DNA of 64,000 nt from Pseudomonadota bacterium. GTDB lineage: Bacteria > Pseudomonadota > Gammaproteobacteria > Burkholderiales > Burkholderiaceae_C. Each line of letters opens with the position of its first letter. The first letter of the stretch is position 1. The notes beneath the pieces are model-generated. The model worked only from the letters and a program-made list of their open reading frames with translations, was not told the origin of the DNA and ran no database searches. The DNA is taken from positions 41,998-105,997 of the forward strand of contig JAFEEH010000224.1 in the NCBI GenBank assembly GCA_018241185.1, read 5' to 3'. A program made the position numbers and the translations under genes. This document shows positions 27,138 to 63,865 of this stretch, one piece after another.

Positions 27138-27603
27138 GAACGGGCTTGCGACCGAGCGTTGGAAGGGCCGCCCGGTGCACGGTGCAGGCTGGGCGCGCCC
27201 CGGTGCGTCGGTCCCCTGCGGGGACTTCCCTGCGATGCTCGGCCGGGGCTCGCGTCGCAGAACTCGCTGCGTTCACTTCGTTCACTCCGCTCAGACAGCT
27301 GCGACGAGCCAGTGCACGAAGCACGCCTGTCCTTCGGCAGGCGTGCCTCGCCCCGGCCTGCGCTTCTCGGCGACGCACAGGGGCGCGCCCAGCCCGCACC
27401 GCGCGCCGGGCTCCGTCGGCAAGTGGGCCGCGCATGTTTGAGCGAAGCGAGTTTGCGCGGACCCCGCCTGTCGCGAGCAGCGCAGGGGAGTCGCGCAGCG
27501 ACCCGCGGCGTCTGAGCGAGCCGGTGCCCGCCCCTCGCCATCGGCGCGCATGGCCACGTCTGGCCGGTCCCGCGATGCAACGTGGCGCACAAGGGGCGAC
27601 CTG
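27138..27603. other. Repeat-filled gap inside the liv operon
   Basis: These 466 bp between livG and livF hold no gene with recognisable similarity. They contain the 90-bp hairpin repeat at 27257-27346 and a second piece (around 27430-27520, TTTGAGCGAAGCGAGTTTGC) of the kind also scattered in related genomes. An open frame of 156 codons (27134-27604) spans the whole gap, starting by ATGA overlap with the livG stop and ending by a one-base overlap with the livF ATG. Its composition (Arg/Ala/Ser-rich) is that of translated repeat. Confidence 0.7.
27257..27346 (+). repeat. 90-bp hairpin repeat (family 1), copy 1
   Basis: It starts GCAGAACTCGCTGCGTTC, has GCTCAGACAGCTGCG in the middle and CACGAAGC before the terminal hairpin. 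The hairpin is GCACGCCTG (27321-27329), loop TCCTTCGG, CAGGCGTGC (27338-27346), a perfect 9-bp stem. Copies at 31628, 32001 and 63777 share the layout and length but have different stems. Confidence 0.85.
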
Positions 27604-28377
27604 ATGACCGCCGAAGTCCTCCAACTCCTCAACGTCGAGAGCGCCTACGGCCCCATCAAGGCCATCCGCGGCGTGAGCCTGAAGGTGCGCCAGGGCGAGA
27701 TCGCCACCGTGCTGGGCAGCAACGGCGCGGGCAAGACGACGATCCTCAAGACCATCTCCGGCATCATCGATCCGCGCAAGGGGTCGATCCACTTCAAGGG
27801 CCTGGACATCACCGCCAAGGACCCGGCCTTCATCGTGCAGCAGGGCCTGTCGCACGTACCCGAGGGCCGCGAGGTGTTCCCGCTGCTCTCGGTGAAGGAC
27901 AACCTGCTCATGGGCGCCTACACCCGTCGCGACCGCGATGGCGTCGTGCGGGACATCGAGACGGTGTTCGGCTACTTCCCCATCCTGCGCGAGCGCGCCG
28001 CGCAGGACGCGGGCCTGCTTTCGGGCGGGCAGCAGCAGATGCTCGCCATCTCGCGCGCCATCATGGCCGCGCCGCAGCTCATCCTGCTCGACGAACCTTC
28101 GCTTGGCCTCTCGCCCAAGCTCACCAAGGAGATTTTCGAGATCGTCGTGCGCATCAACCGCGAGCGCGGCACCACCATCCTGCTGGTCGAGCAGAACGCC
28201 AACATGGCGCTCAATGCCGCCGACTACGGCTACGTGCTCGAGAACGGCCGCATCGTCATGGAAGACACCTGCGAGCGCCTGCGCGAGAAGGACGACATCA
28301 AGGAGTTCTACCTCGGCCTGCAGGACGAGGGCGTTCGCGGCGAGCGCCGCTGGAAAAAGAAGAAGACCTGGCGATGA
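27604..28377 (+). CDS. livF: ABC transporter ATP-binding protein LivF
   Basis: A 257-residue ATPase. Walker A GSNGAGKTT (residues 39-47), LSGGQQQMLAISRA signature and ILLDEPSLGLSPKL Walker B are intact. The C-terminus ends in a Lys/Arg/Trp tail (ERRWKKKKTWR). The ATG overlaps the next gene's coupling pattern downstream (ATGA with the acyl-CoA ligase). The start at 27604 follows the repeat-filled gap after livG; no strong Shine-Dalgarno is seen, which suggests reliance on coupling. Confidence 0.95.
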   Translation: MTAEVLQLLNVESAYGPIKAIRGVSLKVRQGEIATVLGSNGAGKTTILKTISGIIDPRKGSIHFKGLDITAKDPAFIVQQGLSHVPEGREVFPLLSVKDNLLMGAYTRRDRDGVVRDIETVFGYFPILRERAAQDAGLLSGGQQQMLAISRAIMAAPQLILLDEPSLGLSPKLTKEIFEIVVRINRERGTTILLVEQNANMALNAADYGYVLENGRIVMEDTCERLREKDDIKEFYLGLQDEGVRGERRWKKKKTWR

Positions 28378-30266
28378 GCGCATCCACCTCCGCCCCCCTG
28401 CACACCCCCGCCGGCCTGTGGGACCTGGGACACCTCCAGCCGCGTACCGACATTGCCGTGCCGGGCGACACCATCCCCGCCGTGTTCTGGAACGCGGTGG
28501 AACTGCGCAACGATGCCGTGTGGATGCGCCAGAAGGAACTGGGCATCTGGCGCACCTGGACCTGGCGCCAGACCGCGGAGGCGGTGCAGGAGATCGCCGC
28601 CGGCCAGCTGGCGCTGGGCTTCGCCCGTGGCGAGTGCGCATCGATCCTCTCGAACACTGTCGTCGAATGGGTGCTGTGCGACCTGGCCGTGCTCAGTTGC
28701 AACGGCGTGGCCAACGGCATCTACCCGACCGATGCCGCCTCGCAGGTGCACTACCTGTGCGAGGACTCCCGGACCACGCTGCTCTTCGTGGAGGATGACG
28801 AGCAACTCGACAAAGCGCTGGAGGTGCGCGAGCGCCTGCCGGCGCTTCGCAAGATCGTCGTGTTCGACATGGAAGGCCTGCGCGATCTCGACGACCCGGG
28901 CGTCATGAGCCTCGACGCCCTGCGCGCCCTCGGCCGCGAGCACCTGCAGGCCCACCCGCAGGCGGTGCGCGAGCGCGCCGACGGCTGCCGGCCGGAAGAC
29001 CTGGCCATCCTCATCTACACCTCGGGCACGACCGGCAAGCCCAAGGGCGCGATGCACTCGCACCATGGCCTGGTCTACACCATGCGCGGCTACAACACCC
29101 TGGTGGCGCAGGACGAGCGCGACGAGCGCATGTGCTTCCTGCCGCTGTGCCACGTGGCCGAGCGCATGGGCGGTGAATACTTCGCGATGTACACCGGCTC
29201 GGTGCTCAACTTCGTCGAGAACCCCGAGACCGTGCCCGAGAACGTGCGCGAGATCGCGCCCACGGTTTTCACCGCCGTGCCGCGCGTGTGGGAGAAGTTC
29301 TATTCCGGCGTGATGATCGCGCTCAAGGAGGCCAGCGGCGTGCAGCAGGCCGCCTACGCCTGGGCCATCGGGGTCGGCCGTCAGATCGCCGACAAGGTGC
29401 TGGCCGGCGAGGCGGTCGGCGGTGGCCTGAAGCTGCGCTTTCGCATCGCGCGCTGGCTGGTGCTGGACAACGTGCGCAAGCTCATCGGCATTCACAGGGC
29501 GCGCTTCCTCGTCACCGGCGCGGCGCCGATCTCGCCGGAGCTGGTCAGGTGGTATCTCTCGCTGGGCGTGCCCATGCTCGAGGTGTGGGGCATGACCGAG
29601 AGTTGCGGCGCCTCCACCGGCGTGCCTGCGGCGCGCATCAAGCCCGGCTCCATCGGCCCGGCCGCCGGCTACAACGAGGTGCGCCTCGACCCCGCCACCG
29701 GCGAGATTCTGGTGCGCGGCCCGAACGTCTTCATGGGCTACCTCAACCAGCCCGAGAAGACGGCCGAAACCATCGACGCCGAAGGCTGGCTGCACACCGG
29801 CGACGTCGGCCTGATGGAGGAGGACGGGTATTTCCGCATCACCGACCGCATGAAGGACATCATCATCACGGCGGGCGGCAAGAACATCACGCCCAGCGAG
29901 TGGGAGAACGAGCTCAAGTTCAGTCCCTATGTGACCGATGCGGTGGTCATCGGCGATGCGAAGCCCTACCTGACGGTGATCATCATGATCGACCAGGAGA
30001 ACGTCGAGAAATTCGCGCAGGACCACGACGTGCCCTTCAGCAACTACGCCAGCCTCACGCGTGCCCAGGAGGTGCAGGACCTGATTCAGGGCGAGATCGA
30101 CCGCGTGAACGCGAAGTTCGCGCGGGTCGAGCAGATCAAGAAGTTCTTCCTGCTCGACACGCAACTCAGCGCCGAGGATGAGGAGCTGACGCCGACGATG
30201 AAGCTCAAGCGCAAGCTGGTGCAGGCGAAGTACGCGACGCAGATCGAGGCCATGTACCGAGGTTAG
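28374..30266 (+). CDS. AMP-dependent synthetase/ligase (long-chain acyl-CoA synthetase type)
   Basis: A 630-residue adenylate-forming ligase. The AMP-binding signature LIYTSGTTGKPKGAMHSHHG (about residues 212-231), EVWGMTESCG, the GWLHTGDVG motif and the ITDRMKDIIITAGGKNITPS hinge are complete. It is of the FAA1-like class that activates long-chain or branched carboxylic acids to CoA thioesters. Its start overlaps livF by ATGA and a binding-protein gene follows, so the transporter and the activating enzyme are one operon and presumably share a carboxylate substrate. Confidence 0.95.
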   Translation: MSASTSAPLHTPAGLWDLGHLQPRTDIAVPGDTIPAVFWNAVELRNDAVWMRQKELGIWRTWTWRQTAEAVQEIAAGQLALGFARGECASILSNTVVEWVLCDLAVLSCNGVANGIYPTDAASQVHYLCEDSRTTLLFVEDDEQLDKALEVRERLPALRKIVVFDMEGLRDLDDPGVMSLDALRALGREHLQAHPQAVRERADGCRPEDLAILIYTSGTTGKPKGAMHSHHGLVYTMRGYNTLVAQDERDERMCFLPLCHVAERMGGEYFAMYTGSVLNFVENPETVPENVREIAPTVFTAVPRVWEKFYSGVMIALKEASGVQQAAYAWAIGVGRQIADKVLAGEAVGGGLKLRFRIARWLVLDNVRKLIGIHRARFLVTGAAPISPELVRWYLSLGVPMLEVWGMTESCGASTGVPAARIKPGSIGPAAGYNEVRLDPATGEILVRGPNVFMGYLNQPEKTAETIDAEGWLHTGDVGLMEEDGYFRITDRMKDIIITAGGKNITPSEWENELKFSPYVTDAVVIGDAKPYLTVIIMIDQENVEKFAQDHDVPFSNYASLTRAQEVQDLIQGEIDRVNAKFARVEQIKKFFLLDTQLSAEDEELTPTMKLKRKLVQAKYATQIEAMYRG

Positions 30267-30303
30267 ACAAACCGGTTCCCATCAACGAGAGGAGACAACC
30301 GCC

Positions 30304-31470
30304 ATGAAGACCTTCCGCCCCGCCGCCGTCGCGATCGCCGTCCTGGCGCTCGGCGCGTCCTTCGCCCACGCCCAACAGGGCGTGAGCAAGGACGAGATCC
30401 GCATCGGCACCATCCAGGACCTGTCGGGCCCGCTCGCCGGTTTCGGCAAGCAGTCGCGCAACGGCATGCAGTTGCGCGTGGACGAGATCAACGAGCAGGG
30501 CGGCATCAACGGCCGCAAGCTCAAGCTCTACGTGGAGGATTCGGGCTACGACCCGAAGAAGGCCGTGCTGGCGGCGCAGAAGCTGGTCAACCAGGACAAG
30601 ATCTTCATCATGGCCGGCCACATCGGCACCGCACAGAACATGGCGGCCATGCCGGTGCAGTTCGACAAGAACGTCATCAACTTCCTGCCGATCACCGCCG
30701 CGCGCGAGATGTACGAGCCGCTGAATCGGCTCAAGTACTCCTTCGCCGCCACCTACTACGACCAGATCCGCCTGGCGTTGCCCAAGATGGTGAAGGACAA
30801 GGGTGCGAAGAAGGTCTGCACCATCTACCAGGACGACGAGTTCGGCCTGGAGGTGCAGCGCGGGGCCGAGGCGGGCCTGAAGGCCGCGGGCATGGAACTG
30901 GCCGAGAAGACCTCGTTCAAGCGCGGCGCCACCGACTTCAGCTCCCAGGTCGCGAAGATGAAGGCCGCCGGCTGCGACCTGGTGGTGCTGGGCACCATCA
31001 TCCGCGAGACCATCGGCACCATCGGCGAAGCGCGCAAGACCGGCTTCAACCCGACCTTCCTCGGCTCCAGCGCCGCCTACACCGACCTGATCCATAAGCT
31101 CGGTGGCAAGGCCATGGACGGCATGTACGCAACCATGACGGTGCAGAACCCCTACACCGACGAGGCCGACCCCAAGATCCGCTTCTGGGCCAACAAGTAC
31201 AAGACCAAGTTCAATGAGGACCCGACGGTGTTCTCGGTCTACGGCTACATGATCATCGACACCTTCGCGCAGGTGGCGCAGAAGGCCGGTGCCAACCTGA
31301 GCACCGACTCCTTCATCAAGGTCATGGACGCGAGCACCTTCCCGCCCGACATGTTCGGCGCGCCGAAGATGACCTACACCGCCACCAAGCGGCTGGGCAA
31401 CGACCAGTCGCGCCTGTCGCAGATCGTCGACGGCAAGTGGAAGGTGGTGTCGGACTACGTGGCGCAGTGA
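30304..31470 (+). CDS. Branched-chain amino acid type ABC transporter substrate-binding protein
   Basis: A 388-residue periplasmic binding protein of the LivK type. A signal peptide (about residues 1-23, ending SFAHA) precedes IRIGTIQDLSGPLAGFGKQ and RNGMQLRVDEINEQGGINGR, the conserved start of the family. AGAGGAGA stands before the ATG. It closes the liv operon 37 bp after the ligase gene. The ligand is not known; the coupling to an acyl-CoA ligase favours a carboxylic acid without an amino group. Confidence 0.94.
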   Translation: MKTFRPAAVAIAVLALGASFAHAQQGVSKDEIRIGTIQDLSGPLAGFGKQSRNGMQLRVDEINEQGGINGRKLKLYVEDSGYDPKKAVLAAQKLVNQDKIFIMAGHIGTAQNMAAMPVQFDKNVINFLPITAAREMYEPLNRLKYSFAATYYDQIRLALPKMVKDKGAKKVCTIYQDDEFGLEVQRGAEAGLKAAGMELAEKTSFKRGATDFSSQVAKMKAAGCDLVVLGTIIRETIGTIGEARKTGFNPTFLGSSAAYTDLIHKLGGKAMDGMYATMTVQNPYTDEADPKIRFWANKYKTKFNEDPTVFSVYGYMIIDTFAQVAQKAGANLSTDSFIKVMDASTFPPDMFGAPKMTYTATKRLGNDQSRLSQIVDGKWKVVSDYVAQ

Positions 31471-31627
31471 CGGCGGCTCTGCGGGTCTGAGGCAGGCGCT
31501 GGATCGTTCGTCGCATTGGTCCGGCCGGGGCGCGCGCCGGCGCCGGGCCCAGGGGGCGCAGGCTCCTGCGGGGTCGGTCGGCCCTGCGGGCCGACTGCGC
31601 TGCGGTGCTCGGGCGCGGGGCGGTGCC

Positions 31628-31717
31628 GCAGAACTCGCTGCGTTCGCTTCGCTCACTCCGCTCAGACAGCTGCGGCAAGCCAGATCACGAAGCCTGTGTG
31701 TCCTTCGGCACACAGGC
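31628..31717 (+). repeat. 90-bp hairpin repeat (family 1), copy 2
   Basis: Nearly identical to copy 1 up to CACGAAGC. The terminal hairpin is GCCTGTGTG (31692-31700), loop TCCTTCGG, CACACAGGC (31709-31717), again a perfect 9-bp stem but with four changed base pairs relative to copy 1. Confidence 0.85.
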
Positions 31718-32000
31718 CCGCCCCACGCCCTGCGCGCCTCGCCGACCCCGAAGTCGCCTGCACCCCCTGGGCCCGGTGCCGTCGCGTCGAGACGGTCGTT
31801 GTGCACCAGGCGCATCTGGCGTCGCCAAGTGTGCCGACTTGCGCTCGCTCCCTTGCCCTAAATCCACCATGAGGGCCTGAGCCGGGCGCAACAGGGGGCG
31901 CGCGGCCGCTGCCGGTCGATCATCCCGACGCAGGTCCTGGTGCCGGTGAGGGCGCGGCGGTGCGCCTGTGGGGTGCCGAGGAGCGCAGCACGGACGGGCT

Positions 32001-32090
32001 GCGGGCCTGCCGAAGGACAGGCCCGCTTCGTGATCTGACTCGCGGCAGCTGTCCGAGCGCAGTGAACGCAGTGAACGAAGCGAGTTCTGC
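32001..32090 (-). repeat. 90-bp hairpin repeat (family 1), copy 3
   Basis: In reverse orientation to copy 2. On the minus strand it begins GCAGAACTCGCTTCGTTC and ends in the hairpin GCGGGCCTG, loop TCCTTCGG, CAGGCCCGC (32026-32001), a perfect 9-bp stem with a third sequence. Confidence 0.85.
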
Positions 32091-32246
32091 CGCGGCCCGT
32101 TCGCGCGAGCACCGCAGGGCAGTCGGCGGAGCCGACCACCCCACCGAAGCGCCGCCGCGCCCTCACCGGTGCCAGGGCCGGCCCATCGTCCCGAACGTGC
32201 CGTCGCCAGCCACGAACCATGGGCTCAGCCTTCATGCGAGCCCCAG

Positions 32247-32270
32247 AAAAAGGGCCCCCGCAAGGGCCCC
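32247..32270 (-). terminator. Intrinsic terminator of the tctBA operon
   Basis: On the minus strand GGGCCC (32269-32264), a 6-base loop and GGGCCC (32257-32252) form a stem, extended by a G-T pair, followed directly by five T (32251-32247). It lies 47 bp after the tctA stop codon. Confidence 0.75.
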
Positions 32271-32316
32271 GGTGCAACGAACAGGCGGGCCACACGCCCA
32301 CCTGCGCAATGCAACC

Positions 32317-33834
32317 TCACTCCTCGACGAAAGCCTCTTCGCGCTTGGACTTCACCGAGGGCAGCAGCACGATCACCAGCAGCGCCAGCGCAGCCACCAG
32401 CAGGCCGGCCGAGATCGGCCGCGTGACCAGCACGCTCCAGCTGCCACGCGACAGCAGCAGTGCGCGGCGCAGGTTCTCTTCCATCATCGGCCCCAGGATG
32501 AAGCCCAGCAGCAGCGGCGCCGGTTCCACGCGCAGCTTGATGAAGCAGTACCCGATGAAGCCGAAGATCGCGACCATCCACACGTCGAAGGTGTTGTTGT
32601 TGGTCGAGTACACGCCGATCGCGCAGAACAGCACGATGGCCGGGAACAGCAGGCGGTAGGGCACCTTCAGCAGCTTGATCCACATGCCGATGAGCGGCAG
32701 GTTCAGCACGATCAGCATCAGGTTGCCCAGCCACATCGAGGCGATCAGGCCCCAGAACAGCTCGGGGTTGCTGGTCATCACCTGCGGGCCGGGCTGGATG
32801 TTGTGGATGGTCATCGCGCCGACCATCAGCGCCATCACCGGGTTGGGCGGGATGCCCAGCGTCAGCAGCGGGATGAACGACGTTTGCGCGCCGGCGTTGT
32901 TGGCCGACTCCGGGCCCGCCACGCCGCGGATGTTGCCGCGGCCGAAGGCGACCTCGTTCGGGCCCATCTTGAGCTTCTTTTCCAGCGCGTAGGACGCGAA
33001 GGACGCCAGCAGCGCCCCGCCGCCGGGCAGGATGCCCAGGGCCGAGCCCAGCGTCGTGCCGCGCAGCACGGCCGGCGCCATCTTCTTGAAGTCTTCCTTG
33101 GTGGGCCACAGGCCCGTCACCTTGCTGGTGAACACCTCGCGGTCCTCGTCGGGCTGCGACAGGTTGCCGATGATTTCGCCGTAGCCGAACACGCCCATCG
33201 AGATCACGATGAAGCCGATGCCGTCGGTCAGTTCGGGGATGTCGAAGGAAAAGCGCGCCACGCCCGAGTTCACGTCGGTGCCCACCAGGCCCAGCAGCAG
33301 GCCCAGCACCACCATCGCAATCGCCTTGAGCAGGGAGCCCGAGGCCAGCACGACGGCACCGATCAGGCCCAGCACCATCAGGCTGAAATACTCGGCCGGG
33401 CCGAACTTGAAGGCCAGCTCCGTGAGCGGCGGCGCGAAGGCGGCCAGGATGATGGTGCCCACGCAGCCGGCGAAGAAGGAGCCGAGGCCGGCCGCCGCGA
33501 GCGCCGGGCCTGCGCGCCCCTGCCGCGCCATCTGGTAGCCGTCGATGCACGTCACCACCGAGGACGACTCGCCCGGCAGGTTGACCAGGATGGCCGTGGT
33601 GGAGCCGCCGTATTGCGCGCCGTAGTAGATGCCGGCCAGCATGATCAGTGCCGAAACGGGCGGCAGTGCGTAGGTGGCCGGCAGCAGCATCGCGATGGTC
33701 GCGACGGGGCCGATGCCCGGCAGCACGCCGATCAGCGTGCCCAGGATGCAGCCGATCAGGCAGTACAGCAGGTTGGTCCAGGTGACCGCGACGCCGAAGC
33801 CCGTGGCCAGGTTGGCGAAAAGATTGAAGTCCAT
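32317..33834 (-). CDS. tctA: Tripartite tricarboxylate transporter permease TctA
   Basis: A 505-residue large permease with about twelve transmembrane segments. GTLIGVLPGIGPVATIAMLL (about residues 34-53) and the paired later copy LGILPGGGALLASF are the conserved TctA loops, and GGSTTAILVNLPGESSSVVT is the family signature near residue 80. It forms the inner-membrane channel with TctB, whose gene ends 16 bp upstream. A TctC-type binding protein is encoded divergently at 34669, giving a full TTT system for a di/tricarboxylate or similar acid. Confidence 0.96.
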   Translation of the reverse strand: MDFNLFANLATGFGVAVTWTNLLYCLIGCILGTLIGVLPGIGPVATIAMLLPATYALPPVSALIMLAGIYYGAQYGGSTTAILVNLPGESSSVVTCIDGYQMARQGRAGPALAAAGLGSFFAGCVGTIILAAFAPPLTELAFKFGPAEYFSLMVLGLIGAVVLASGSLLKAIAMVVLGLLLGLVGTDVNSGVARFSFDIPELTDGIGFIVISMGVFGYGEIIGNLSQPDEDREVFTSKVTGLWPTKEDFKKMAPAVLRGTTLGSALGILPGGGALLASFASYALEKKLKMGPNEVAFGRGNIRGVAGPESANNAGAQTSFIPLLTLGIPPNPVMALMVGAMTIHNIQPGPQVMTSNPELFWGLIASMWLGNLMLIVLNLPLIGMWIKLLKVPYRLLFPAIVLFCAIGVYSTNNNTFDVWMVAIFGFIGYCFIKLRVEPAPLLLGFILGPMMEENLRRALLLSRGSWSVLVTRPISAGLLVAALALLVIVLLPSVKSKREEAFVEE

Positions 33835-33850
33835 GGTCGTGCCTTCGCCT

Positions 33851-34339: not shown

Positions 34340-34668
34340 ATGTCTCCACCTCTGACTAGGAACTGACGAGCGTCGTCGCCCGTGGCTGACTCCGGGCTGA
34401 CCATGTGCTACGGACTAATGCGTAGAACCGATCAAAAGAAATCAGCGAAATCGGGCTTCAACGCCCGTCCTGTTTGCGCGAAACGCTATTGAATTGATAG
34501 CAATGAAAGGTGTGTCCGGGCGACGCGCGCGCCCATCGGCGCGCGGCAGCAGGGGCATCGTGAAGCGGCACCGCCCGGGGCGCGGCGCTGGGGCACACTC
34601 CGGCCTCCCGCGCGCGCCCACGGGGCACGCGGCATCCCACCACGAGACAAGCCATCGGATTCCTCCCC
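34340..34668. other. Divergent intergenic region between tctB and the Bug gene
   Basis: No gene is seen. The left half is moderately AT-rich and should hold promoters for both directions. A family 2 repeat occupies 34441-34503. No specific operator could be recognised. Confidence 0.5.
34441..34503 (+). repeat. Dispersed GC-hairpin repeat (family 2), copy 4
   Basis: Contains GAAATCGGGCTTCAACGCCC and, at its end, GCTATTGAATTGATAGCAA, a palindrome with GCTATtgaattgATAGC pairing. It is in the tctB/Bug divergent region. Confidence 0.65.
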
Positions 34669-36860: not shown

Positions 36861-38036
36861 CTACATCCACCCCAGCTGCTTCGCCGCCAGCTCCTTCATG
36901 ATCTCCTCGGCGCCGCCGCCGATCATCATCACCTTCACCTCACGGTAGATGCGTTCGCTCGCCATGCCGCGCATGTAGCCCATGCCGCCGAGGATCTGCA
37001 CGGCGGCGTCGGCGCAGAACTGCATCGTCTGGGTGGCCTGGTTCTTGAGCAGGCACACGTCGGCGACCCAGGCCGGGGCGTTGACCTGGCCCTCGGCCTC
37101 GAGCGCATCGCCCTGCGCGGCCACGGCGTCGAGCCAGGCCTCGGTCGCGGCGATGCGCATCTGCATGTCGGCCAGCCGGTGGCGCACGGCCTGGTGGCCG
37201 ATGAGCGCGTGGCCGAAGGCCTGACGTTGCCGCGCCCAGGCCAGCGCCTCGTCCAGGCAGGCCTGCGCGAAGCCCAGCGCGCTCGCCGCCAGGCCGAGCC
37301 GCTCGCCGTTGAAGTTGCCCATGACCATGCGAAAGCCCGCGCCTTCGTCGCCGAGCAGGTAGCGCGCGGGCACGCGCACGCCGTCGAAGTGCAACTGCGC
37401 CGTGTCGGAGCACCACCAACCCATCTTGCGCAAGGGCGTGCGCGTGAGGCCCGGGCTGTCGCCGGGCACCAGCAGCAGCGAGATGCCGCGCGCGCCCTTT
37501 TCGTCGCTGCTGCCGGTGCGCACGGCCACGGTCAGCCAGTCGGCCCGCATGCCCGAGGTGATGTAGATCTTTTCGCCGTCGACCACGTAGTCGTCGCCGT
37601 CGCGTCGCGCACGGGTGCGGATCGCCGCCACATCCGAGCCGCCGCCCGGCTCGGTGATCGCCAGGGCCGCGATGCGCTCGCCGCGCAGCACCGGCGGCAC
37701 GACGTCCTGCTGCAGCGCGCCGCTGCCGTGCAGCACCACCGGCGGCAGGCCGATGTTGTGCGAGAAAAGGCTGGCCAGCACGCCGCCGCTGGTCCCGTAA
37801 CGCGCGAAGGCGACCCACAGCGCGACCTTGAGCGCATGCGGCGCCGGTGTGCCGCCGAGCGATTCCGGGTAGCCGATGCCCAGCAGCCCCAGCTCGCCCG
37901 CACGCCGGTACAGCGCCCGCGGGAACTCGCCCGCCTCGTCCCACGCGGCGGCGTGCGGCGCGACTTCGTCCTGTGCGAAGCGGCGCACCGTGTCGGCGAG
38001 GGCGGTGCGTTCGACTTGATCAGCGTTGAAGGTCAT
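36861..38036 (-). CDS. Acyl-CoA dehydrogenase family protein
   Basis: A 391-residue acyl-CoA dehydrogenase of normal length. ALAITEPGGGSDVAAIRTRA and YITSGMRADWLTVAVRTG (FAD contacts) and QILGGMGYMRGMASERIYRE (C-terminal motif) are intact. It lies after another acyl-CoA dehydrogenase gene, an SDR and the carboxylase genes on the same strand. The ATG has no clear Shine-Dalgarno; a long inverted repeat ends 16 bp upstream. The substrate is likely a branched acyl-CoA of the same pathway. Confidence 0.93.
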   Translation of the reverse strand: MTFNADQVERTALADTVRRFAQDEVAPHAAAWDEAGEFPRALYRRAGELGLLGIGYPESLGGTPAPHALKVALWVAFARYGTSGGVLASLFSHNIGLPPVVLHGSGALQQDVVPPVLRGERIAALAITEPGGGSDVAAIRTRARRDGDDYVVDGEKIYITSGMRADWLTVAVRTGSSDEKGARGISLLLVPGDSPGLTRTPLRKMGWWCSDTAQLHFDGVRVPARYLLGDEGAGFRMVMGNFNGERLGLAASALGFAQACLDEALAWARQRQAFGHALIGHQAVRHRLADMQMRIAATEAWLDAVAAQGDALEAEGQVNAPAWVADVCLLKNQATQTMQFCADAAVQILGGMGYMRGMASERIYREVKVMMIGGGAEEIMKELAAKQLGWM

Positions 38037-38052
38037 GGAAGGGTCTTGAATG

Positions 38053-38156
38053 CGGACTTCCGGACGCAGAGGACGCAGAAGTTCCGCAGAAGGCGCAGAA
38101 GAAACCAAGAATCTTCTTGAATGAATTCTTTTGCGTCCTCTGCGTCCGGAAGTCCG
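38053..38156. repeat. Long inverted repeat (family 3), copy 1
   Basis: The 25-bp arm at 38053-38077 (CGGACTTCCGGACGCAGAGG and on) is exactly repeated in reverse complement at 38132-38156, extended by two more A-T pairs inward. The middle 50 bp contain GCAGAAGGCGCAGAAG and GAATGAATTC. A nearly identical copy is at 39352-39476. Each copy lies just upstream of an acyl-CoA dehydrogenase gene. Confidence 0.85.
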
Positions 38157-38169
38157 ATTTCCGACAGCC

Positions 38170-39327
38170 TCACCGCGGCGCCCGCTTCGCGATGCCCATG
38201 GTCTTGGCCAGGATGCCCAGCATCACCTCGTCGGCGCCGCCGCCGATGGAGCCCAGGCGGCCGTCGCGGTACAGGCGCGAAACGCGGTTCTCCAGCGTGA
38301 AGCCCATGCCGCCCCAGAACTGCAGGCAGGTGTCGGCCACCTGGCGCGTGAGCCGGCCGGCCTTGAGCTTGGCCATGGACGCGAGCTCCAGCACGTCCTG
38401 CCCCTCGAGGTACAGGTCGCAGGCGCGATACGTCAGCGCGCGCAGGGCCTCGACCTCGGTCTTGAGTTCGGCCAGCTTGAACTGCACCCACTGCTGGTCG
38501 GCCAGCGTGGCGCCGAACATGCGGCGCTGCTGCGCCCACTCGATGGTTTCGGCAATGCATTCCTCCATCGGCACCAGCGCGCTCGCGGCGGCCCACAGGC
38601 GCTCCTCCTGGAACTGCTGCATCTGGTAGACGAAGCCCTGGCCTTCCTCGCCGATCAGGAAGCGCCGCGGCACGCGCACCTCGTCGAAGTGGATCAGGCC
38701 GGTGTCGCTGCTGTGCATGCCGATCTTGCGGATCTTCTTGGCCTTCTCGATGCCCGGCCGGTCCATCGGCACCACGACCAGCGACTTGTTGCGATGCACC
38801 GGCCCGTCGCTGGTGTTGACCAGCATGCACATCCAGTCGGCCTGCAGGCTGTTGGTGATCCACATCTTCTGGCCGCTGATGACGTAGTCGTCGCCGTCCT
38901 TGCGCGCATGGCTCTTCACGCCGGCCACGTCGCTGCCGGCACCGGGCTCGCTCACGCCGATGCAGCCCACCGTGTCGCCCGCGATGGCCGGCGCGAGGAA
39001 TTCGCGCTTGAGTTCGTCGCTGCCGAAGCGCGCCAGCGCCGGCGTGCACATGTCGGTCTGCACGCCGATGGCCATCGGCACGCCGCCGCAGCGCACGTGG
39101 CCCAGCGCCTCGGCCAGGGCCATGGCGTAGGAGTAGTCGAGCCCGCCGCCGCCGTAGTCCTCGGGCTTGTTCAGGCCCAGCAGGCCCAGTTCGCCCAGGC
39201 CCTTGAAGATCCGGTGCAGCGGGGCGATCTCCGCCTCCTCCCACTCGTCCACGTGCGGGTTGATGTGCGCGTCGATGTAGCGGCGCAGCGTCTTCTGGAT
39301 CTCGAGGTGTTCGTGGGTGTAGTGCAT
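38170..39327 (-). CDS. Acyl-CoA dehydrogenase, citronellyl-CoA dehydrogenase (AtuD)-like
   Basis: A 385-residue flavoprotein. VSEPGAGSDVAGVKSHARKD and WITNSLQADWMCMLVNTSDG are the FAD-binding segments and FWGGMGFTLENRVSRLYRDG the C-terminal motif. The N-terminus (MHYTHEHLEIQKTLRRYIDA, GLLGLNKPEDYGGGGLDYSY) resembles AtuD-like dehydrogenases of acyclic terpene breakdown, judged from memory. AAGGA lies before the ATG. Family 3 inverted repeats lie on both sides of the gene. Exact substrate is inferred, not shown. Confidence 0.92.
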   Translation of the reverse strand: MHYTHEHLEIQKTLRRYIDAHINPHVDEWEEAEIAPLHRIFKGLGELGLLGLNKPEDYGGGGLDYSYAMALAEALGHVRCGGVPMAIGVQTDMCTPALARFGSDELKREFLAPAIAGDTVGCIGVSEPGAGSDVAGVKSHARKDGDDYVISGQKMWITNSLQADWMCMLVNTSDGPVHRNKSLVVVPMDRPGIEKAKKIRKIGMHSSDTGLIHFDEVRVPRRFLIGEEGQGFVYQMQQFQEERLWAAASALVPMEECIAETIEWAQQRRMFGATLADQQWVQFKLAELKTEVEALRALTYRACDLYLEGQDVLELASMAKLKAGRLTRQVADTCLQFWGGMGFTLENRVSRLYRDGRLGSIGGGADEVMLGILAKTMGIAKRAPR

Positions 39328-39351
39328 GGGGTCCTTGGAGTGCTCCGAATA

Positions 39352-39476
39352 CGGACTTCCGGACGCAGAGGACGCAGAAGTTCCGCAGAAGGCGCAGAAG
39401 AAGCCAAGAATCTTTTCTGAATGAATTCTTTTGCGTCCTCTGCGAAACCTTTGCGTCCTCTGCGTCCGGAAGTCCG
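39352..39476. repeat. Long inverted repeat (family 3), copy 2
   Basis: The arms at 39352-39376 and 39452-39476 match each other over 25 bp and match copy 1. This copy has a roughly 20-bp tandem duplication in the right arm (TGCGTCCTCTGCGAAACCTT before the final arm). It lies 24 bp before the acyl-CoA dehydrogenase ATG and ends 3 bp from the stop of the SDR gene. Confidence 0.85.
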
Positions 39477-39479
39477 CTT

Positions 39480-40394
39480 TCAGGACGCGTCGAACACGCG
39501 CGGCGTCACCGCGCGGTGGAAACCGTTGAATGGCGCGACGGCCGCCCGCTGCTGCGCGGCGGCGTCGGGGATTTGCATGGGCCAGCCCATGCGCACCTGC
39601 GGGCGCGCGCCGTCGACGCGCAGCACGGTGCCGCTGATGAAGGCGGCGGCGGGGCCGAGCAGGAAGCAGATGGCGGCGGAGGTCTCGGCCTCGGTGCCGA
39701 AGCGGCCGGCCGGCACGGTGCGGCGCATCGCACGCAGCATGTCGCCGGCCTCGGGCGGGTAGTGGTCCATGCCGCTGGAGGCGATGTAGCCCGGCGCCAC
39801 GGCGTTCACGCGCACGCCGCTCACGGCCCATTCGGCGGCCGCCGTCTCGGTGAAGCTCACCATGCCCGCGCGCGCCGCGCCGCTGTGGCCCATGTTGGGC
39901 ATCGAGCCCCACATGTCGGCCACGATGTTGACGATGGCGCCGCCGGCCGCCTTCATGGCCTGCAGGTAGCACTCGCGCGCGAACAGGAAGCCGCCCGTGA
40001 GGTTGGTGTGGATCACCGCGTCCCAGCCCTTGGCCGAGATGCTCTCCAGCGGCGCGATGTACTGCCCGCCGGCGTTGTTGACGAGCGCGTCGATGCGCCC
40101 GTGCGCGGCCATCACTGCCGCCACCGTGGCCTTGACCGGGCCCTCCTGCCGGATGTCGCAGGCCTGCACCTCGGCCCGGCCGCCGCTCGCCGCGCAGTCG
40201 TGTGCGATCTCGGCCTGTACGGCCGCCAGCTTGTCGCGGTTGCGGCCCACCAGCACCACGTGCGCCCCGAGCGCCGCCAGCTCGTGCGCCGTGCAGCGGC
40301 CGATGCCGGAACCGCCGCCGGTGACGACGACCACCCGCCCCGAAAAGAGGCTGGGCGCGAACACGGAGCGGTACGAAGAGGACGGCGTGGTCAT
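39480..40394 (-). CDS. SDR family oxidoreductase (AtuB/AtuG or dienoyl-CoA reductase-like)
   Basis: A 304-residue short-chain dehydrogenase. The cofactor site [20 protein letters not shown] (about residues 21-40) and [10 protein letters not shown] are normal. The catalytic YxxxK is not found: the aligned segment reads [10 protein letters not shown], with Ser and Arg at the Tyr and Lys positions. Dienoyl-CoA reductases also lack the canonical Tyr there, so a CoA-linked reductase is plausible. It sits between the biotin carboxylase gene and acyl-CoA dehydrogenase genes on one strand, comparable to atuB/atuG in Pseudomonas. Confidence 0.9.
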
Positions 40395-55917: not shown

Positions 55918-55960
55918 GGGCGGCATTATTCCTGTGGAGCGGCGGCGCGATGCGCGCCGC

Positions 55961-57713: not shown

Positions 57714-57818
57714 GGCCCTCGGGCGCGGCGCCCAGCGCCGATCGGGGGAGGGCGCGCGCCCCGTGGCGCGGCTCTCCTGGTCGTGTCCTTCACCGGCCGC
57801 GCTTGCGGCCTGCCTGCC

Positions 57819-58442: not shown

Positions 58443-60433
58443 AAGTCCGCAAGGAACTCTGGTTCGGCCTGTCCTTCATGGCGCTGATCGTGGTGCTGGC
58501 CGGCACCGTGCTGCTGCGTGCCGAGACCATCACCAACGGGCACCTGGGCCTCTTGATGCTCTCGCTGGTGGTCGTGGCGATCATGCTGGGATTTCCCACC
58601 GCCTTCACGCTGATGGGCATGGGCATGCTGTTCACCTGGCTGGCCTACGAGCGCGACACCACACGCACGCTCGACCTGATGGTGCAGGCGGCCTACAAGA
58701 CGATGGCCAACGACGTGCTCATCGCGATCCCGTTGTTCGTCTTCATGGGCTACCTGGTGGAGCGGGCCAACCTGATCGAGTCGCTGTTCCGCAGCCTGCA
58801 CCTGGCGATGGCGCGGCTGCCCGGCGCGCTGGCCGTGGCCACGCTCGTGACCTGCACCATCTTCGCCACCGCGACCGGCATCGTCGGCGCGGTGGTCACC
58901 CTGATGGGGCTGCTGGCGCTGCCGGCGATGCTGCGCGGCGGCTACAGCGTGCCGCTGGCGGCCGGGTCGATCACGGCGGGCGGTTGCCTGGGCATCCTGC
59001 TGCCGCCCTCGGTGCTGCTGATCGTGTACGGCGCGACGGCCGGCGTGTCGGTGGTGCAGCTGTATGCGGGCGCCTTCTTCCCCGGCCTGATGCTGGCCAC
59101 GCTGTACATCCTCTACGTGGTCCTGATCGCCAAGCTCAAGCCGCAGTGGGCGCCGCCGCTGTCGGCCGAGGAACGGCGCGTGCCCCTGCCGCCGCTGACC
59201 GCGCGACTGGCCGACAGCCCGCAGGCGAACGCGCTGCTTCGCCTGATGAAGGGCCGGCGCAACGCCGAGGTGCCGATCGGCTACATCGCCCGCCAGACCT
59301 TCATCCTGGCGCTGCCGGCGCTGGTGTTCGTGCTGCTGGCCGGGAGCAGCTGGCGCGCGGTGACCACGGTGCCGGCGGAGGAGCACTACGAGATCCAGGA
59401 GATCGGCACCGAACGCGCCGGCAGTCCGTCCGGCAGCGGTGGCCTGGCGGAGCCGCCCCAGGCGGGCGGGCTGCAGGAGCCTCCGGCCGACGGGGGCCTG
59501 CAGGAGCCGCCGCAGGACGGCGGCCTGGCCGAACCCCCGCAGGAGGGCGGACTTCAGCCGCCGCCTTCGGAGCCCCAGGCCGGCCGGGCCCTGCCCGAGC
59601 CGCCGGGGGCCCAGCGCGCCGCGCCGGCGCCCGCCGCCGCACAGGCCGACACCGCGCCCACCGCCGAGGCAGCCGGCCGACCGGCACCGACCTGGTGGTG
59701 GGTCGTGTTCTCGGTCCTCGGCTGCCTCACCGTGCTGTTCTACCTCTTCGCCAGCTTCGCACGGCTCGAGATCTTCAAGATGCTGCTGGCCTCCTTCTTC
59801 CCGCTGATGCTGCTCATCCTCGCGGTGCTGGGCTCCATCGTGCTGGGACTGGCGACACCCACCGAGGCCGCGGCCATGGGCGCGCTGGGCGGCATGCTGC
59901 TGGCGGCGGCGTACCGGCGATTCAACCTCGCGGTGCTCAGGGAATCGGTCTTCCTCACGGCCAAGACCTCGGCCATGGTGTGCTGGCTCTTCGTCGGCTC
60001 GGCCATCTTCTCGGCGGCCTTCGCGTTGCTCGGCGGGCAGCAGCTGGTCGAGGAGTGGGTGATGTCGATGAACCTGAGCCAGCTGCAGTTCCTGCTGCTG
60101 AGCCAGGTCATCATCTTCCTGCTGGGATGGCCGCTGGAGTGGACCGAGATCATCGTGATCTTCATGCCCATCTTCATCCCGCTGCTGGACAACTTCGGCG
60201 TCGACCCGCTGTTCTTCGGCCTCCTCGTCGCGTTGAACCTGCAAACCGCGTTCCTCTCGCCGCCGGTGGCGATGGCGGCCTTCTACCTCAAGGGCGTGAG
60301 CCCGCAGCATGTCACCCTCAACCAGATCTTCCTGGGCATGCTGCCCTTCATGGGCATCCAGATCCTGGCGATTTTCCTGCTCTACGTCTGGCCGCAGATC
60401 GGCCTGTGGCTGCCGCAGCTGCTCTACAAGTGA
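58439..60433 (+). CDS. TRAP transporter large permease (DctM family) with a repeat-bearing insert
   Basis: A 664-residue permease, much longer than the usual 430. The N-terminal half (LGLLMLSLVVVAIMLGFPTA, ATGIVGAVVTLMGLLALPAM, ITAGGCLGILLPPSVLLIVY) and the C-terminal half (LGLATPTEAAAMGALGG, PPVAMAAFYLKGV) are a normal DctM. Between them, at about residues 320-430, lies a hydrophilic Pro/Gly/Ala-rich insert with five tandem 9-residue units of the type GGLxEPPQx at 334-378. Large subunits of the chloroaromatic branch (FcbT3-like) are known to be longer, but this tandem repeat is unusual. Confidence 0.94.
   Translation: MKVRKELWFGLSFMALIVVLAGTVLLRAETITNGHLGLLMLSLVVVAIMLGFPTAFTLMGMGMLFTWLAYERDTTRTLDLMVQAAYKTMANDVLIAIPLFVFMGYLVERANLIESLFRSLHLAMARLPGALAVATLVTCTIFATATGIVGAVVTLMGLLALPAMLRGGYSVPLAAGSITAGGCLGILLPPSVLLIVYGATAGVSVVQLYAGAFFPGLMLATLYILYVVLIAKLKPQWAPPLSAEERRVPLPPLTARLADSPQANALLRLMKGRRNAEVPIGYIARQTFILALPALVFVLLAGSSWRAVTTVPAEEHYEIQEIGTERAGSPSGSGGLAEPPQAGGLQEPPADGGLQEPPQDGGLAEPPQEGGLQPPPSEPQAGRALPEPPGAQRAAPAPAAAQADTAPTAEAAGRPAPTWWWVVFSVLGCLTVLFYLFASFARLEIFKMLLASFFPLMLLILAVLGSIVLGLATPTEAAAMGALGGMLLAAAYRRFNLAVLRESVFLTAKTSAMVCWLFVGSAIFSAAFALLGGQQLVEEWVMSMNLSQLQFLLLSQVIIFLLGWPLEWTEIIVIFMPIFIPLLDNFGVDPLFFGLLVALNLQTAFLSPPVAMAAFYLKGVSPQHVTLNQIFLGMLPFMGIQILAIFLLYVWPQIGLWLPQLLYK
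59438..59572 (+). repeat. Five 27-bp tandem repeats inside the TRAP large permease gene
   Basis: The DNA encodes GGLAEPPQA, GGLQEPPAD, GGLQEPPQD, GGLAEPPQE and GGLQPPPSE in direct succession. Units differ at synonymous and a few non-synonymous sites, so they are not a very recent expansion. Confidence 0.9.
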
Positions 60434-60451
60434 ATTGGTAACGGATGTGAC

Positions 60452-60502
60452 GAATTCGGCCACAACGCCCGCCCGGCGGGCGCTGCAGGCCGATTGCACT
60501 TT
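60452..60502 (-). repeat. Dispersed GC-hairpin repeat (family 2), copy 7, partial
   Basis: On the minus strand: GTGCAATCGGCCTGCAGCGC followed by a CGCCCGC/GCGGGCG hairpin. The AT palindrome is absent. It lies 19 bp after the TRAP operon and may act as its 3' hairpin, though without a T run. Confidence 0.65.
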
Positions 60503-60601
60503 GTCCGTTGCGGGCCATCCGAGGTCTTGCCACCTGCCGCGGACATGGCGCGCGCATGCCGGCTACAGTGCGCCGGCGGGCCGACCCGCGGAGACCTGGA
60601 C

Positions 60602-61960
60602 ATGCCTCAGTACGACTTCGACCTTTTCGTCATCGGGGGCGGCAGCGGCGGCGTGCGCGCCGCGCGCATGGCGGCCCAGCGCGGCGCCCGCGTCGCGCTG
60701 GCCGAGTGCGCCGAACTGGGCGGCACCTGCGTCAACGTGGGCTGCATCCCGAAGAAGCTCTACAGCTACGCGGCCGGCTATGCCGAGTCCTTCGCCGAGG
60801 CGCCCGGCTACGGCTGGACGCTGCCCGAGGCGCCGCGCTTCGACTGGCAACGGCTCAAGACCCAGCGCGCCCAGGAGATCCGTCGGCTCAACGGTGTCTA
60901 CCAGGGCCTGCTCGACAGTGCGGGCGTGCGGCTCATCCCGGCCTGGGCCGAGCTGGTGGACGGCCACACGGTGCAGGTCGATGGCCAGCGCCACACGGCG
61001 CAGCACATCCTGGTCGCCACCGGCGGCATGCCCTTCGTGCCCGAGGTCGCCGGGCGCGGGCACGCGGTGGTGTCGGACGACATGTTCGACCTGCCCGAAT
61101 TCCCGCGCCGGCTGGTGGTGGTGGGCGGCGGCTACATCGCCTGCGAGTTCGCGTCCATCTTCCGTGGCCTGGGCGCCGAGGTCACGCTGCTGCAGCGCAA
61201 CGCGCATGTGCTCGACGCCTTCGACGAGGACGTGCGCCACTTCCTCGCGCAGGAGATGGGCAAGACCGGCATCGACCTGCGGCTGAACGTGCAGGTCGAG
61301 ATGCTGCGTCGTACCGGCGATGGCGTGCTGGCCAGCCTTTCGCGCGGCCAGCAGCTCGTGGCCGACACCGTCCTCTTCGCCACCGGGCGGCGCCCCAACA
61401 CGGCCGGCATGGGGCTGGAGGCCGCAGGCGTCGCGCTCGACGAGAGCGGCGCGATCGTGGTCGATGCGCAGTACCGCAGCACCGTCCCGTCGGTGCTGGC
61501 GGTGGGCGACGTGTCCACGCGGCTGCCGCTCACGCCTGTGGCGCTCGCCGAGGCGATGGTGGTGGTCGACCGCCTGTTCGCGCACGGCGGGCGGCGCATG
61601 GACTACGAGTACGTCCCCACGGCCGTGTTCACGCACCCGAACGTCGGCACCTGCGGCTACACCGAGGCCGCGGCGCGGGCGCGCTTCGGCAAGGTGCGCA
61701 TCTTCTGCAGCGAGTTCAAGACGCTGCGCCACACCTTGTCGGGCCGCAGCGAACGCACCTTCATGAAGCTGGTGGTGGATGTGAAGACCGACCGCGTCGT
61801 GGGCCTGCACATGGTCGGCGCCGAGGCGGGCGAGATCGTGCAGGGCTTCGCCGTGGCCATGCGCGCGGGCGCGACGAAGGCGGACTTCGACGGCACGATC
61901 GGCATCCACCCCACGTCGGCGGAGGAGTTCGTGACGATGCGCGAGCCGATGCCGGGGTGA
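60602..61960 (+). CDS. gor: Glutathione-disulfide reductase
   Basis: A 452-residue flavoprotein disulphide reductase. FAD site FVIGGGSGGVRAARMAA (residues 9-25), redox pair Cys43/Cys48 in GGTCVNVGCIPKK, NAD(P)H site VVVGGGYIACEFASIFRGLG, and the C-terminal GIHPTSAEE with catalytic His436. The sequence fits glutathione reductase better than dihydrolipoamide or mercuric reductase. GGAGA stands before the ATG. It may support the GST and peroxide defence genes elsewhere in the window. Confidence 0.95.
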   Translation: MPQYDFDLFVIGGGSGGVRAARMAAQRGARVALAECAELGGTCVNVGCIPKKLYSYAAGYAESFAEAPGYGWTLPEAPRFDWQRLKTQRAQEIRRLNGVYQGLLDSAGVRLIPAWAELVDGHTVQVDGQRHTAQHILVATGGMPFVPEVAGRGHAVVSDDMFDLPEFPRRLVVVGGGYIACEFASIFRGLGAEVTLLQRNAHVLDAFDEDVRHFLAQEMGKTGIDLRLNVQVEMLRRTGDGVLASLSRGQQLVADTVLFATGRRPNTAGMGLEAAGVALDESGAIVVDAQYRSTVPSVLAVGDVSTRLPLTPVALAEAMVVVDRLFAHGGRRMDYEYVPTAVFTHPNVGTCGYTEAAARARFGKVRIFCSEFKTLRHTLSGRSERTFMKLVVDVKTDRVVGLHMVGAEAGEIVQGFAVAMRAGATKADFDGTIGIHPTSAEEFVTMREPMPG

Positions 61961-62018
61961 ACTGGCGCGGCCGTCAGGCCGTCATGGCCCGGTGGCATGC
62001 CCATTGCACAATGCCGCC

Positions 62019-63536
62019 ATGCCCTACATGCCGCCTTTCGTCGCCCCGGTCCGCTTCACCGATCCCGCCGCCGCCCTTGCGCAGGTCCAGCGCATCTATG
62101 ACAGCGGCCTGGCGCACCTGCGCGACTCGATGCAGCGCTTCGTGGCGGGCGAAACGCTGCCCGGCCGGGTGCGTGCCTGCTACCCCTTCGTGCGGGTGCA
62201 CACGCACACGGTGTCGCGCCACACCACGCCGGCCAATGCCGGCCTGAGCTACGGCTTCGTGGCCGGGCCGGGCCGCTACGAGACCACGCTCACGCGGCCC
62301 GACCTGTTCGCGCGCTACTACCTCGACCAGTTCCGCCTGCTGCTCGAGAACCACCAGATCGAGCTCGAGGTGGGCACCAGCACGCAGCCGATCCCCGTGC
62401 ACTTCTCCTTCGCCGAGAACGACCACATCGAGGGCACGATGTCGCCGCAGCGCCGCGCGCTGATGCGCGACGTGTTCGACCTGCCCGACCTCGGCGCCAT
62501 GGATGACGGTATCGCCAACGGCACCCATCAGACCCAGCCCGGCGAGGCCGAACCGCTGGCGCTGTTCACGGCCGCGCGCGTGGATTACTCGCTGCAACGC
62601 CTGCGCCACTACACCGGCACCGCGCCCGACTGGTACCAGAACTTCGTGCTGTTCACCAACTACCAGTTCTACATCGACGAGTTCGTGCGCCTGGGCCACG
62701 AGGCGATGGCCGACGAGTCGAGCGAGTACATCGCCTTCATCGAGCCCGGCAACGTGGTGACGCGGCGCCACAACCTGCAGCCCGAGGCGATGGGCAGCTT
62801 CGAGGCTGCGCTCAATGCCATGCAGGGCACGCCGCCGGGCCGCCTGCCGCAGATGCCGGCCTACCACCTGGTGCGCGCCGACTGCAGCGGCATCACCATG
62901 GTCAACATCGGCGTCGGCCCGGCCAACGCCAAGACCATCACCGACCACATCGCCGTGCTGCGCCCGCATGCCTGGATGATGCTGGGCCATTGCGCGGGCC
63001 TGCGCAACACGCAGCAGCTGGGCGACTACGTGCTGGCGCATGCCTACGTGCGCGAGGACCATGTGCTGGACGAGGAACTGCCGCTGTGGGTGCCGATCCC
63101 GGCGCTGTCGGAGATCCAGCTCGCGCTCGAGGCGGCCGTGGCCGAGGTCACGCAGTGCAAGGGCGCCGAGTTGAAGACCATCATGCGCACCGGCACCGTG
63201 GCCAGCACCGACAACCGCAACTGGGAGCTGCTGCCCAACAACGAGCCGCAGCGCCGCTTCAGCCAGAGCCGTGCCGTGGCGCTCGACATGGAGAGCGCCA
63301 CCATCGCCGCCAACGGCTTTCGCTTCCGCGTGCCGTACGGCACCTTGCTGTGCGTGAGCGACAAGCCGCTGCACGGCGAGATCAAGCTGCCCGGGATGGC
63401 GAACCACTTCTACCGGGAGCGGGTGGAGCAGCATCTGCGGATCGGGATCAAGGCGGTGGAGGTGCTGCGGTCGCAGGGGTCGGGGCGGCTGCACAGTCGG
63501 AAGCTGCGGAGTTTTGCGGAGGTGGCGTTTCAGTAG
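62019..63536 (+). CDS. amn: AMP nucleosidase
   Basis: A 505-residue enzyme that splits AMP to adenine and ribose 5-phosphate. It has the N-terminal AMP nucleosidase-specific domain (YPFVRVHTHTVSRHTTPANA, GRYETTLTRPDLFARYY) and a C-terminal nucleoside-phosphorylase-like domain (GMVNIGVGPANAKTITDH-type stretch, RAVALDMESATIAANGFRFR). The ATG at 62019 was chosen; a GTG nine codons upstream is also in frame. Together with purT it is a purine gene, but the two are far apart. Confidence 0.96.
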   Translation: MPYMPPFVAPVRFTDPAAALAQVQRIYDSGLAHLRDSMQRFVAGETLPGRVRACYPFVRVHTHTVSRHTTPANAGLSYGFVAGPGRYETTLTRPDLFARYYLDQFRLLLENHQIELEVGTSTQPIPVHFSFAENDHIEGTMSPQRRALMRDVFDLPDLGAMDDGIANGTHQTQPGEAEPLALFTAARVDYSLQRLRHYTGTAPDWYQNFVLFTNYQFYIDEFVRLGHEAMADESSEYIAFIEPGNVVTRRHNLQPEAMGSFEAALNAMQGTPPGRLPQMPAYHLVRADCSGITMVNIGVGPANAKTITDHIAVLRPHAWMMLGHCAGLRNTQQLGDYVLAHAYVREDHVLDEELPLWVPIPALSEIQLALEAAVAEVTQCKGAELKTIMRTGTVASTDNRNWELLPNNEPQRRFSQSRAVALDMESATIAANGFRFRVPYGTLLCVSDKPLHGEIKLPGMANHFYRERVEQHLRIGIKAVEVLRSQGSGRLHSRKLRSFAEVAFQ

Positions 63537-63540
63537 TCGT

Positions 63541-63600
63541 TGCTATCGAAACCATAGCTGGTGGCGCTTGCTGGGCGGGCGGTTGGGGCACTTTTTGTTT
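63541..63600 (-). repeat. Dispersed GC-hairpin repeat (family 2), copy 8
   Basis: The palindrome GCTATCGAAACCATAGC (63542-63558) is followed by a GC block with GCGCTTGCTGGGCGGGCG and CACTTTTTG. It begins 5 bp after the amn stop codon. Confidence 0.6.
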
Positions 63601-63660
63601 ATGAATTTGGGCCTTGCTCAGATGTGGATGCAGGAGCCGGGATGTCGCCCCGGCGGGCGA

Positions 63661-63694
63661 CCTACTTTTCTTTGCTTCGCCAAAGAAAAGTAGG
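63661..63694. repeat. Strong hairpin with 14-bp stem
   Basis: CCTACTTTTCTTTG (63661-63674) and CAAAGAAAAGTAGG (63681-63694) pair perfectly around the loop CTTCGC. From memory, this string is widespread between genes in many beta- and gamma-proteobacteria, often next to the type of repeat found at 63777. Confidence 0.8.
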
Positions 63695-63776
63695 CAAAAG
63701 AAAGGCGACCCTGCTGGCTGCGACCCCTTCGCTTCGCTACGGGGCAACCTGCGCCGCGACGCTGTCGGGGTGCGCT

Positions 63777-63865
63777 GCAGAACTCGCTATGCGCTGCGCG
63801 CTGCGCTCGAACAGCTGCAGCGAGTCAGATCACGAAGCAGCTGTTGCCGCACGCGGCACAGCTGC
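63777..63865 (+). repeat. 90-bp hairpin repeat (family 1), copy 4
   Basis: Begins GCAGAACTCGCTATGCGC, keeps ACAGCTGC, GAGTCAGATCACGAAGC and ends in a longer hairpin: GCAGCTG (63837-63843) with CAGCTGC (63859-63865), inside which GCCG/CGGC pair around CACG. The loop differs from the other three copies. Confidence 0.75.

What the first reader, a model, noticed from the sequence alone, without database searches (positions are those of the whole stretch)
27257..63865. 90-bp dispersed repeat whose hairpin stems co-vary
Copies at 27257-27346, 31628-31717, 32001-32090 (minus) and 63777-63865 share length (90, 90, 90, 89 bp) and order. In the first three the terminal stem is GCACGCCTG, GCCTGTGTG and GCGGGCCTG, each perfectly paired to its partner around the same loop TCCTTCGG. 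Up to four of nine base pairs differ between two copies, always with the compensating change. The fourth copy has another paired stem and another loop. Conserved pairing with changing sequence means the structure itself is selected or copied by a structure-dependent process. No transposase lies nearby and no T run follows, so a plain terminator or IS end does not explain it. It could be a structured RNA, a protein-binding cruciform or a non-autonomous mobile element.
Basis: seen in the sequence. Interest (0 to 1): 0.75.

Follow-up and report, generated by a model that had tools for sequence, protein, structure and literature searches.

The report
Paired folding repeats between bacterial genes
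The repeat is real: it is part of a larger intergenic element, usually two big hairpins facing each other, whose paired stems change together while their loops stay alike, and sequence signs suggest that one strand folds on its own, as in small non-autonomous mobile repeats.

Summary
The 90-bp copies 1-3 are the inner part of modules with further copy-specific paired arms. On 34 distinct modules, stems P4+P5 pair in 95.7% of cells; 60 cells changed on both sides against 13.8 in shuffles. Modules occur in 14 of 15 genomes of the genus, in other Burkholderiales, and in Lachnospiraceae, Blautia and a CPR genome. No module of 169 lies in a predicted gene, divergent spacers are avoided, T runs are rare, orientation to genes is near random. 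A RAYT gene is neither adjacent nor associated. Best reading: a REPIN/BIME-like non-autonomous repeat family of unusual build, enzyme unknown.

Best explanation
The repeats are modules of a family of composite palindromic intergenic elements. A full module is a long branched hairpin: outer stem P1, small hairpin P2, an internal loop with CTGCGNTNCTCG-like motifs on both sides, stem P3, hairpin P4 with the near-constant loop CAGAACTCGCT...CTCRRACAGCTG, and often hairpin P5. Loops stay alike while stems change by paired substitutions. Modules are single or face each other in pairs. Inferred: that this strand folds as single-stranded DNA, with C-GNA-G triloops, when the DNA is opened (replication, repair, excision), and that a structure-reading enzyme handles it, so that stems are free to change as long as they pair. 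The elements would thus work like REPINs/BIMEs: non-autonomous, dispersed rarely, then inherited and kept folded. The enzyme is unknown.
For: Covariation. P4 flank pairing in 83 distinct flank pairs: 0.96, 0.96, 0.99, 0.88, 0.78 for the five inner positions against 0.83, 0.49, 0.39, 0.48, 0.30 shuffled. Pairs head-to-head: 68 of 68 distinct pairs, orthologues included; of 112 strict modules with 800 bp on both sides 66 have a facing partner, 0 any other arrangement, 46 none; 35 of 35 in 14 genomes of other genera. 0 of 169 modules inside predicted genes; 3 divergent spacers of 128 modules classified on both sides, against 65 of 303 spacers in the same loci. Strand bias: P1 G.T 5 to A.C 33 (60 modules), P3 1 to 14 (110 modules) (contexts; binomial on 6 to 47, 5.8e-9, contexts not fully independent). 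Opposite strand more stable in 144 of 155 with DNA parameters, 129 of 155 with RNA parameters. Type B: copies in unrelated loci end in GCAGGAGCCGGGA-like inverted repeats; element seen at the cytochrome site in 5 of 14 genomes and at the dehydrogenase site in 6 of 15, all of one group. GNA DNA mini-hairpins, Tm 78 C for GCGAAGC: PMC4686876 (passages).
Against: No enzyme found: the single RAYT-like gene is not flanked by modules in six loci and its presence is not associated (element in 125 of 210 genomes with it, 5 of 10 without; p 0.74). No target-site duplication seen. The strand bias is absent in the low-GC set (9 to 9 distinct contexts, 26 modules) and in small local hairpins (20 to 19), and low-GC modules show no C-GNA-G triloop (0 of 6). 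Mismatches of other kinds are also common (42 and 11 distinct contexts). Orthologous copies look inherited rather than active. G.U tolerance is also what RNA would give, and strand-biased deamination could mimic it.
Confidence: 0.5

Rival explanations
1. A structured RNA: the strand opposite to the reader's is transcribed and folds; paired modules give a folded RNA in whichever direction transcription enters.
For: G.U-type mismatches tolerated on that strand; lower RNA energy in 129 of 155; conserved unpaired motifs.
Against: No Rfam match at gathering; no clear orientation bias to genes, 47 to 36, and among single modules 19 to 10 (p 0.14) in the direction that makes the proposed strand antisense; spacer between modules differs and is short in some genomes, little room for a shared promoter (by eye), and no sigma-70-like site at 31400-32420; C-GNA-G triloops are a DNA motif.
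Confidence: 0.22
2. Palindrome correction: template switching during replication copies one arm onto the other, so stems look compensated without selection on structure.
For: Both outer arms differ together between orthologous copies while the core stays (livG-livF site: G000/G010/G014 against G013/G008, by eye).
Against: It does not by itself predict the A.C over G.T asymmetry, the strand bias of triloops, the alike loops across phyla or the head-to-head rule.
Confidence: 0.13
3. Transcription terminator or 3' mRNA stabiliser.
For: Window modules 2 and 3 lie beyond the 3' ends of convergent genes.
Against: T runs are rare (A5 or T5 at 60-140 nt in 4 and 5 of 144); a terminator-like site already lies between tctA and module 3 (32251-32270); near-random orientation. 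In G005 a stem with a T run before the element was seen by eye only; the scan did not report it.
Confidence: 0.06
4. Member of the RAYT-mobilised REP superfamily.
For: Inverted dimers, singlets, spacer location and compensatory changes as in REPINs (PMC3116915 passages, PMC3733652 abstract and section 14); in the genus the one genome without Y1_Tnp is also the one without modules.
Against: No GTAG or CGTC tag in the conserved columns, module too long, no RAYT association in the family.
Confidence: 0.06

Closest known systems
REPINs / BIMEs (inverted doublets of REP sequences, RAYT-associated)
   Same: Two inverted palindromic units with a spacer, singlets also present, extragenic, predicted to fold as a single strand, compensatory changes common (PMC3116915 passages).
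   Different: Module core 86-146 nt, with arms about 240-255 nt in the window, instead of short REPs; no GTAG tag; 4-23 loose-pattern hits in each of the 14 genomes of the genus that have it; only one relative orientation seen; no RAYT link.
GTAG/CGTC-tagged REPs and their dimers (PMC3733652, abstract and section 14)
   Same: Heterodimers with different stems; between unidirectional and convergent genes; CGTC REPs lack a dedicated transposase.
   Different: REPs are 20-40 bp and form both HH and TT dimers; no such tag here.
Stem-loop sequence families of bacterial genomes (PMC2267715, passages only)
   Same: Dispersed families that fold.
   Different: Not read for matching families; the passages seen do not name this group.
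MITEs / Correia-like elements (recalled)
   Same: Type B has terminal inverted repeats and is too short for a normal transposase gene.
   Different: No target duplication seen; an autonomous partner was not searched for.
RF02278 Betaproteobacteria toxic small RNA
   Same: Small hairpin family of the same bacterial group (recalled; family name).
   Different: None of its 9 weak matches lies at a copy; none reaches the cut-off.

Membership tests
REP superfamily (GTAG/CGTC) | palindrome of 20-40 bp | tested here: not met
   Conserved module core 86-146 nt in 82 modules; with arms 242-254 nt in the window
REP superfamily (GTAG/CGTC) | unpaired GTAG or CGTC at one end | tested here: not met
   No such conserved motif in alignment A1 of 34 modules (judged on its consensus and invariant columns; ends of the outer arms not included)
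REPIN | two inverted units with spacer | tested here: met
   68 of 68 close pairs; but 46 of 112 modules single
REPIN | RAYT gene linked to or flanked by the repeat | tested here: not met
   Six RAYT-like loci without modules within about 1.5 kb; no association in 220 genomes
REPIN | mobilisation by the RAYT | not testable with these tools
   needs experiment
MITE | terminal inverted repeats | tested here: met
   Type B only: GCAGGAGCCGGGA-like ends
MITE | target-site duplication | tested here: inconclusive
   Type B flanks and empty sites read by eye; extra flanking sequence hides the site
MITE | autonomous element with the same ends | not tested
   -
Structured non-coding RNA of Rfam | match at gathering score | tested here: not met
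   0 in the window and in 10 loci. Below cut-off: 2 matches away from the copies and 21 microRNA-hairpin matches, best E 3e-8, in the spacer hairpin of one type B copy (L009 1232-1348)
RF02278 | match over cut-off at the copies | tested here: not met
   9 matches up to E 10, none over cut-off or at a copy
Integron attC site | integrase boxes and bottom-strand recombination by IntI | not tested
   considered only because attC is also read as a folded strand (recalled)

The most novel reading that the evidence does not exclude
A so far unnamed, cross-phylum class of two-module elements (Burkholderiales, Lachnospiraceae, CPR) whose ends are recognised purely as a folded single DNA strand: near-constant loop CAGAACTCGCT...CTCRRACAGCTG, freely changing stems, strict head-to-head order, and an unidentified structure-reading recombinase, primase or repair enzyme that is not a RAYT.
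Probability: 0.25. Interest if true: 0.8.

Novelty: new variant of a known kind. Interest (0 to 1): 0.58.

Why it matters
Here loops and order are fixed but stems are free, over very different bacteria, with a strand bias that can be measured. If it stands, the same strand test (A.C against G.T mismatches, GNA triloops) can help to tell DNA-level from RNA-level folding in other repeat families, and the family offers a handle on which enzyme reads such structures.

Tried and rejected
RAYT as driver: in the genus the only genome without the Y1_Tnp gene (G003) is also the only one without modules, which looked promising; over 220 family genomes it fell apart. RF02278: no overlap. Sense 3'-UTR element: suggested by window copies 2 and 3, not borne out over 169 modules. 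Terminator: T runs rare. A first gene finder trained on shadow ORFs was thrown away, replaced. One search printed no sequences and was repeated.

Literature: the two searches for element strings (20, 27) gave 1 and 5 papers (4 of the 5 listed), none about such repeats by title or abstract start, none opened; only open-licence papers are held, so absence from print is not shown. Seen: PMC4686876, PMC3116915, PMC2267715 in passages; PMC3733652 outline with abstract, one section and a word search; the rest search listings only.

Phages: no match of type B in 50,697 records; 3 IMG/VR contigs hold the strict pattern. Plasmids: 83 records match type B, one Variovorax replicon over 97% of it, the other 24 listed in part only (58 not listed), many of them just short spacer hairpins; one partial match of module 2.

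Limits of the counts. Loci L004-L007 (inside the window) were left out from then on in most counts; one search also left out loci L164 and up, low-GC loci and short loci; copies near contig ends or with N were dropped where flanks were needed. The spacer background comes from loci chosen for their modules. removes identical sequences only, so orthologues count separately. In one search I aligned 34 of 54 long modules, chosen by similarity below 0.93; the 27 short ones were not in that count. One search counts include chance single hits: the pattern read backwards gives 0-2 on a strand.

Full report
CHECK. Three stems are perfect and differ by paired changes. Repeat search showed that copies 1-3 are also enclosed by outer arms of 41-46 nt that differ between copies but pair within each copy; single-strand folding of 271-291 nt gave z-scores -6.7 (copy 2), -4.2 (copy 3), -6.2 (copy 1) and -2.6 for the fourth copy.

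FAMILY. The window is part of contig C138 of a 5.34-Mb draft genome. The strict pattern has 11 hits in the genome; a looser one 18 there and 4-23 in each of 14 of 15 genomes of the genus, none in G003 (the pattern read backwards gives 0-1 on a strand). In those the P4 loop is alike and the stems are different but paired. Among the loci fetched by the element, the window's genes are closest to those of Comamonadaceae bacterium ALPHA2B (L072) and Xenophilus aerolatus (L080), 95-100% protein identity. In the family 130 of 220 genomes have at least one hit of the loose pattern, single hits being possibly chance.

COVARIATION. On 34 distinct modules, P4 and P5 were counted: 95.7% paired, 11 of 16 pairs changed on both sides, 60 cells against 13.8 +/- 2.9 in shuffles, slid controls at most 8. 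The shuffles do not remove relatedness; the slid controls and the range of genera help.

UNIT. All 68 distinct pairs closer than 1 kb among the loci held face each other, including Lachnospiraceae and Blautia. With a looser partner pattern, 66 of 112 modules have a facing partner, none has any other, 46 have none. From the listed places, 35 of 35 pairs in 14 genomes face each other (the listing was cut). Partner spacers differ between genomes (by eye). Type B copies in unrelated loci share a composite bounded by GCAGGAGCCGGGA-like inverted repeats, about 580-730 bp in the loci where both ends were found.

PLACE. With a gene finder trained on the loci, 0 of 169 modules lie in genes. With genes on both sides (128 modules): tandem co-oriented 47, tandem anti 36, convergent 42, divergent 3; all spacers of 100 bp or more in these loci: tandem 194, convergent 44, divergent 65. 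T or A runs are rare. The livG-livF junction is occupied in Xenophilus-type genomes and in eight further loci, six of them named Variovorax and two not listed by name there; it lacks the element in 8 of the 14 genus genomes looked at. At that site both outer arms differ between close relatives while the core is kept. At the binding-protein site the module is absent in G013 while its partner remains. Type B was seen at the cytochrome site in 5 of 14 genomes (two cut by contig ends; in G002 the contig ends where it would begin; 8 without it) and at the dehydrogenase site in 6 of 15 (some cut by contig ends; 9 without it, the two genes abutting or overlapping).

STRAND. A.C on one strand is T.G on the other, so wobble pairs are tolerated on the opposite strand. 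C-GNA-G triloops, known from DNA mini-hairpins (PMC4686876, passages; that the RNA form is less stable is recalled), lie on that same strand 46 to 11, 73 of 130 hairpins having neither; controls are even. Energies agree (also 60 of 73). Against: low-GC modules and small local hairpins show no asymmetry, low-GC modules no such triloop (0 of 6), and deamination of an exposed strand could give the same bias as selection; that too would mean that this strand is exposed.

DRIVER. One Y1_Tnp (RAYT-like) gene lies in 14 of 15 genomes of the genus, with no module within about 1.5 kb in the six loci read. In 220 genomes modules occur in 125 of 210 with it and 5 of 10 without. It is not the driver on this evidence. 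No other candidate was tested.

VERDICT. A real, structure-conserved intergenic repeat family, single or in facing pairs, that works most like REPINs/BIMEs but fails their tag, size and RAYT tests. I give 0.5 to the single-stranded DNA reading, 0.22 to RNA, 0.13 to template switching.

Noticed in passing
   Followed up: yes
L207 and L223 against L210 and L224: The flanks of two type B copies differ in partner between the window's genome and G013 (cytochrome gene - element - lacI in G000; dehydrogenase - element - lacI in G013): recombination between copies or misassembly of a draft genome.
   Followed up: no
L195, after the binding-protein gene: The P4 loop of the orthologous copy 2 in G011 is interrupted by what looks like an insertion sequence.
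   Followed up: no
L001, L003, L010, L208, L209, L211, L226: Contigs of several draft assemblies end inside or at these elements, so copy numbers are lower bounds.
   Followed up: no
window 38031-38115, 39330-39414, 38038-39491: Another repeat: 85-nt direct copies (88%) and inverted copies of a GGACGCAGAGGACGCAGAAG sequence.
   Followed up: no
L012 (G000:C108:79907-79967): A near-cut-off match to RF02278 toxic small RNA, 44.4 bits against 50, E 2.3e-7, not at any of these repeats.
   Followed up: no
L009 1232-1348 and similar: A long near-perfect hairpin with TCCCTCTCCCTCTGGGAGAGGG in the type B spacer; parts of the spacer also match plasmids of enterobacteria (short partial matches).
   Followed up: no
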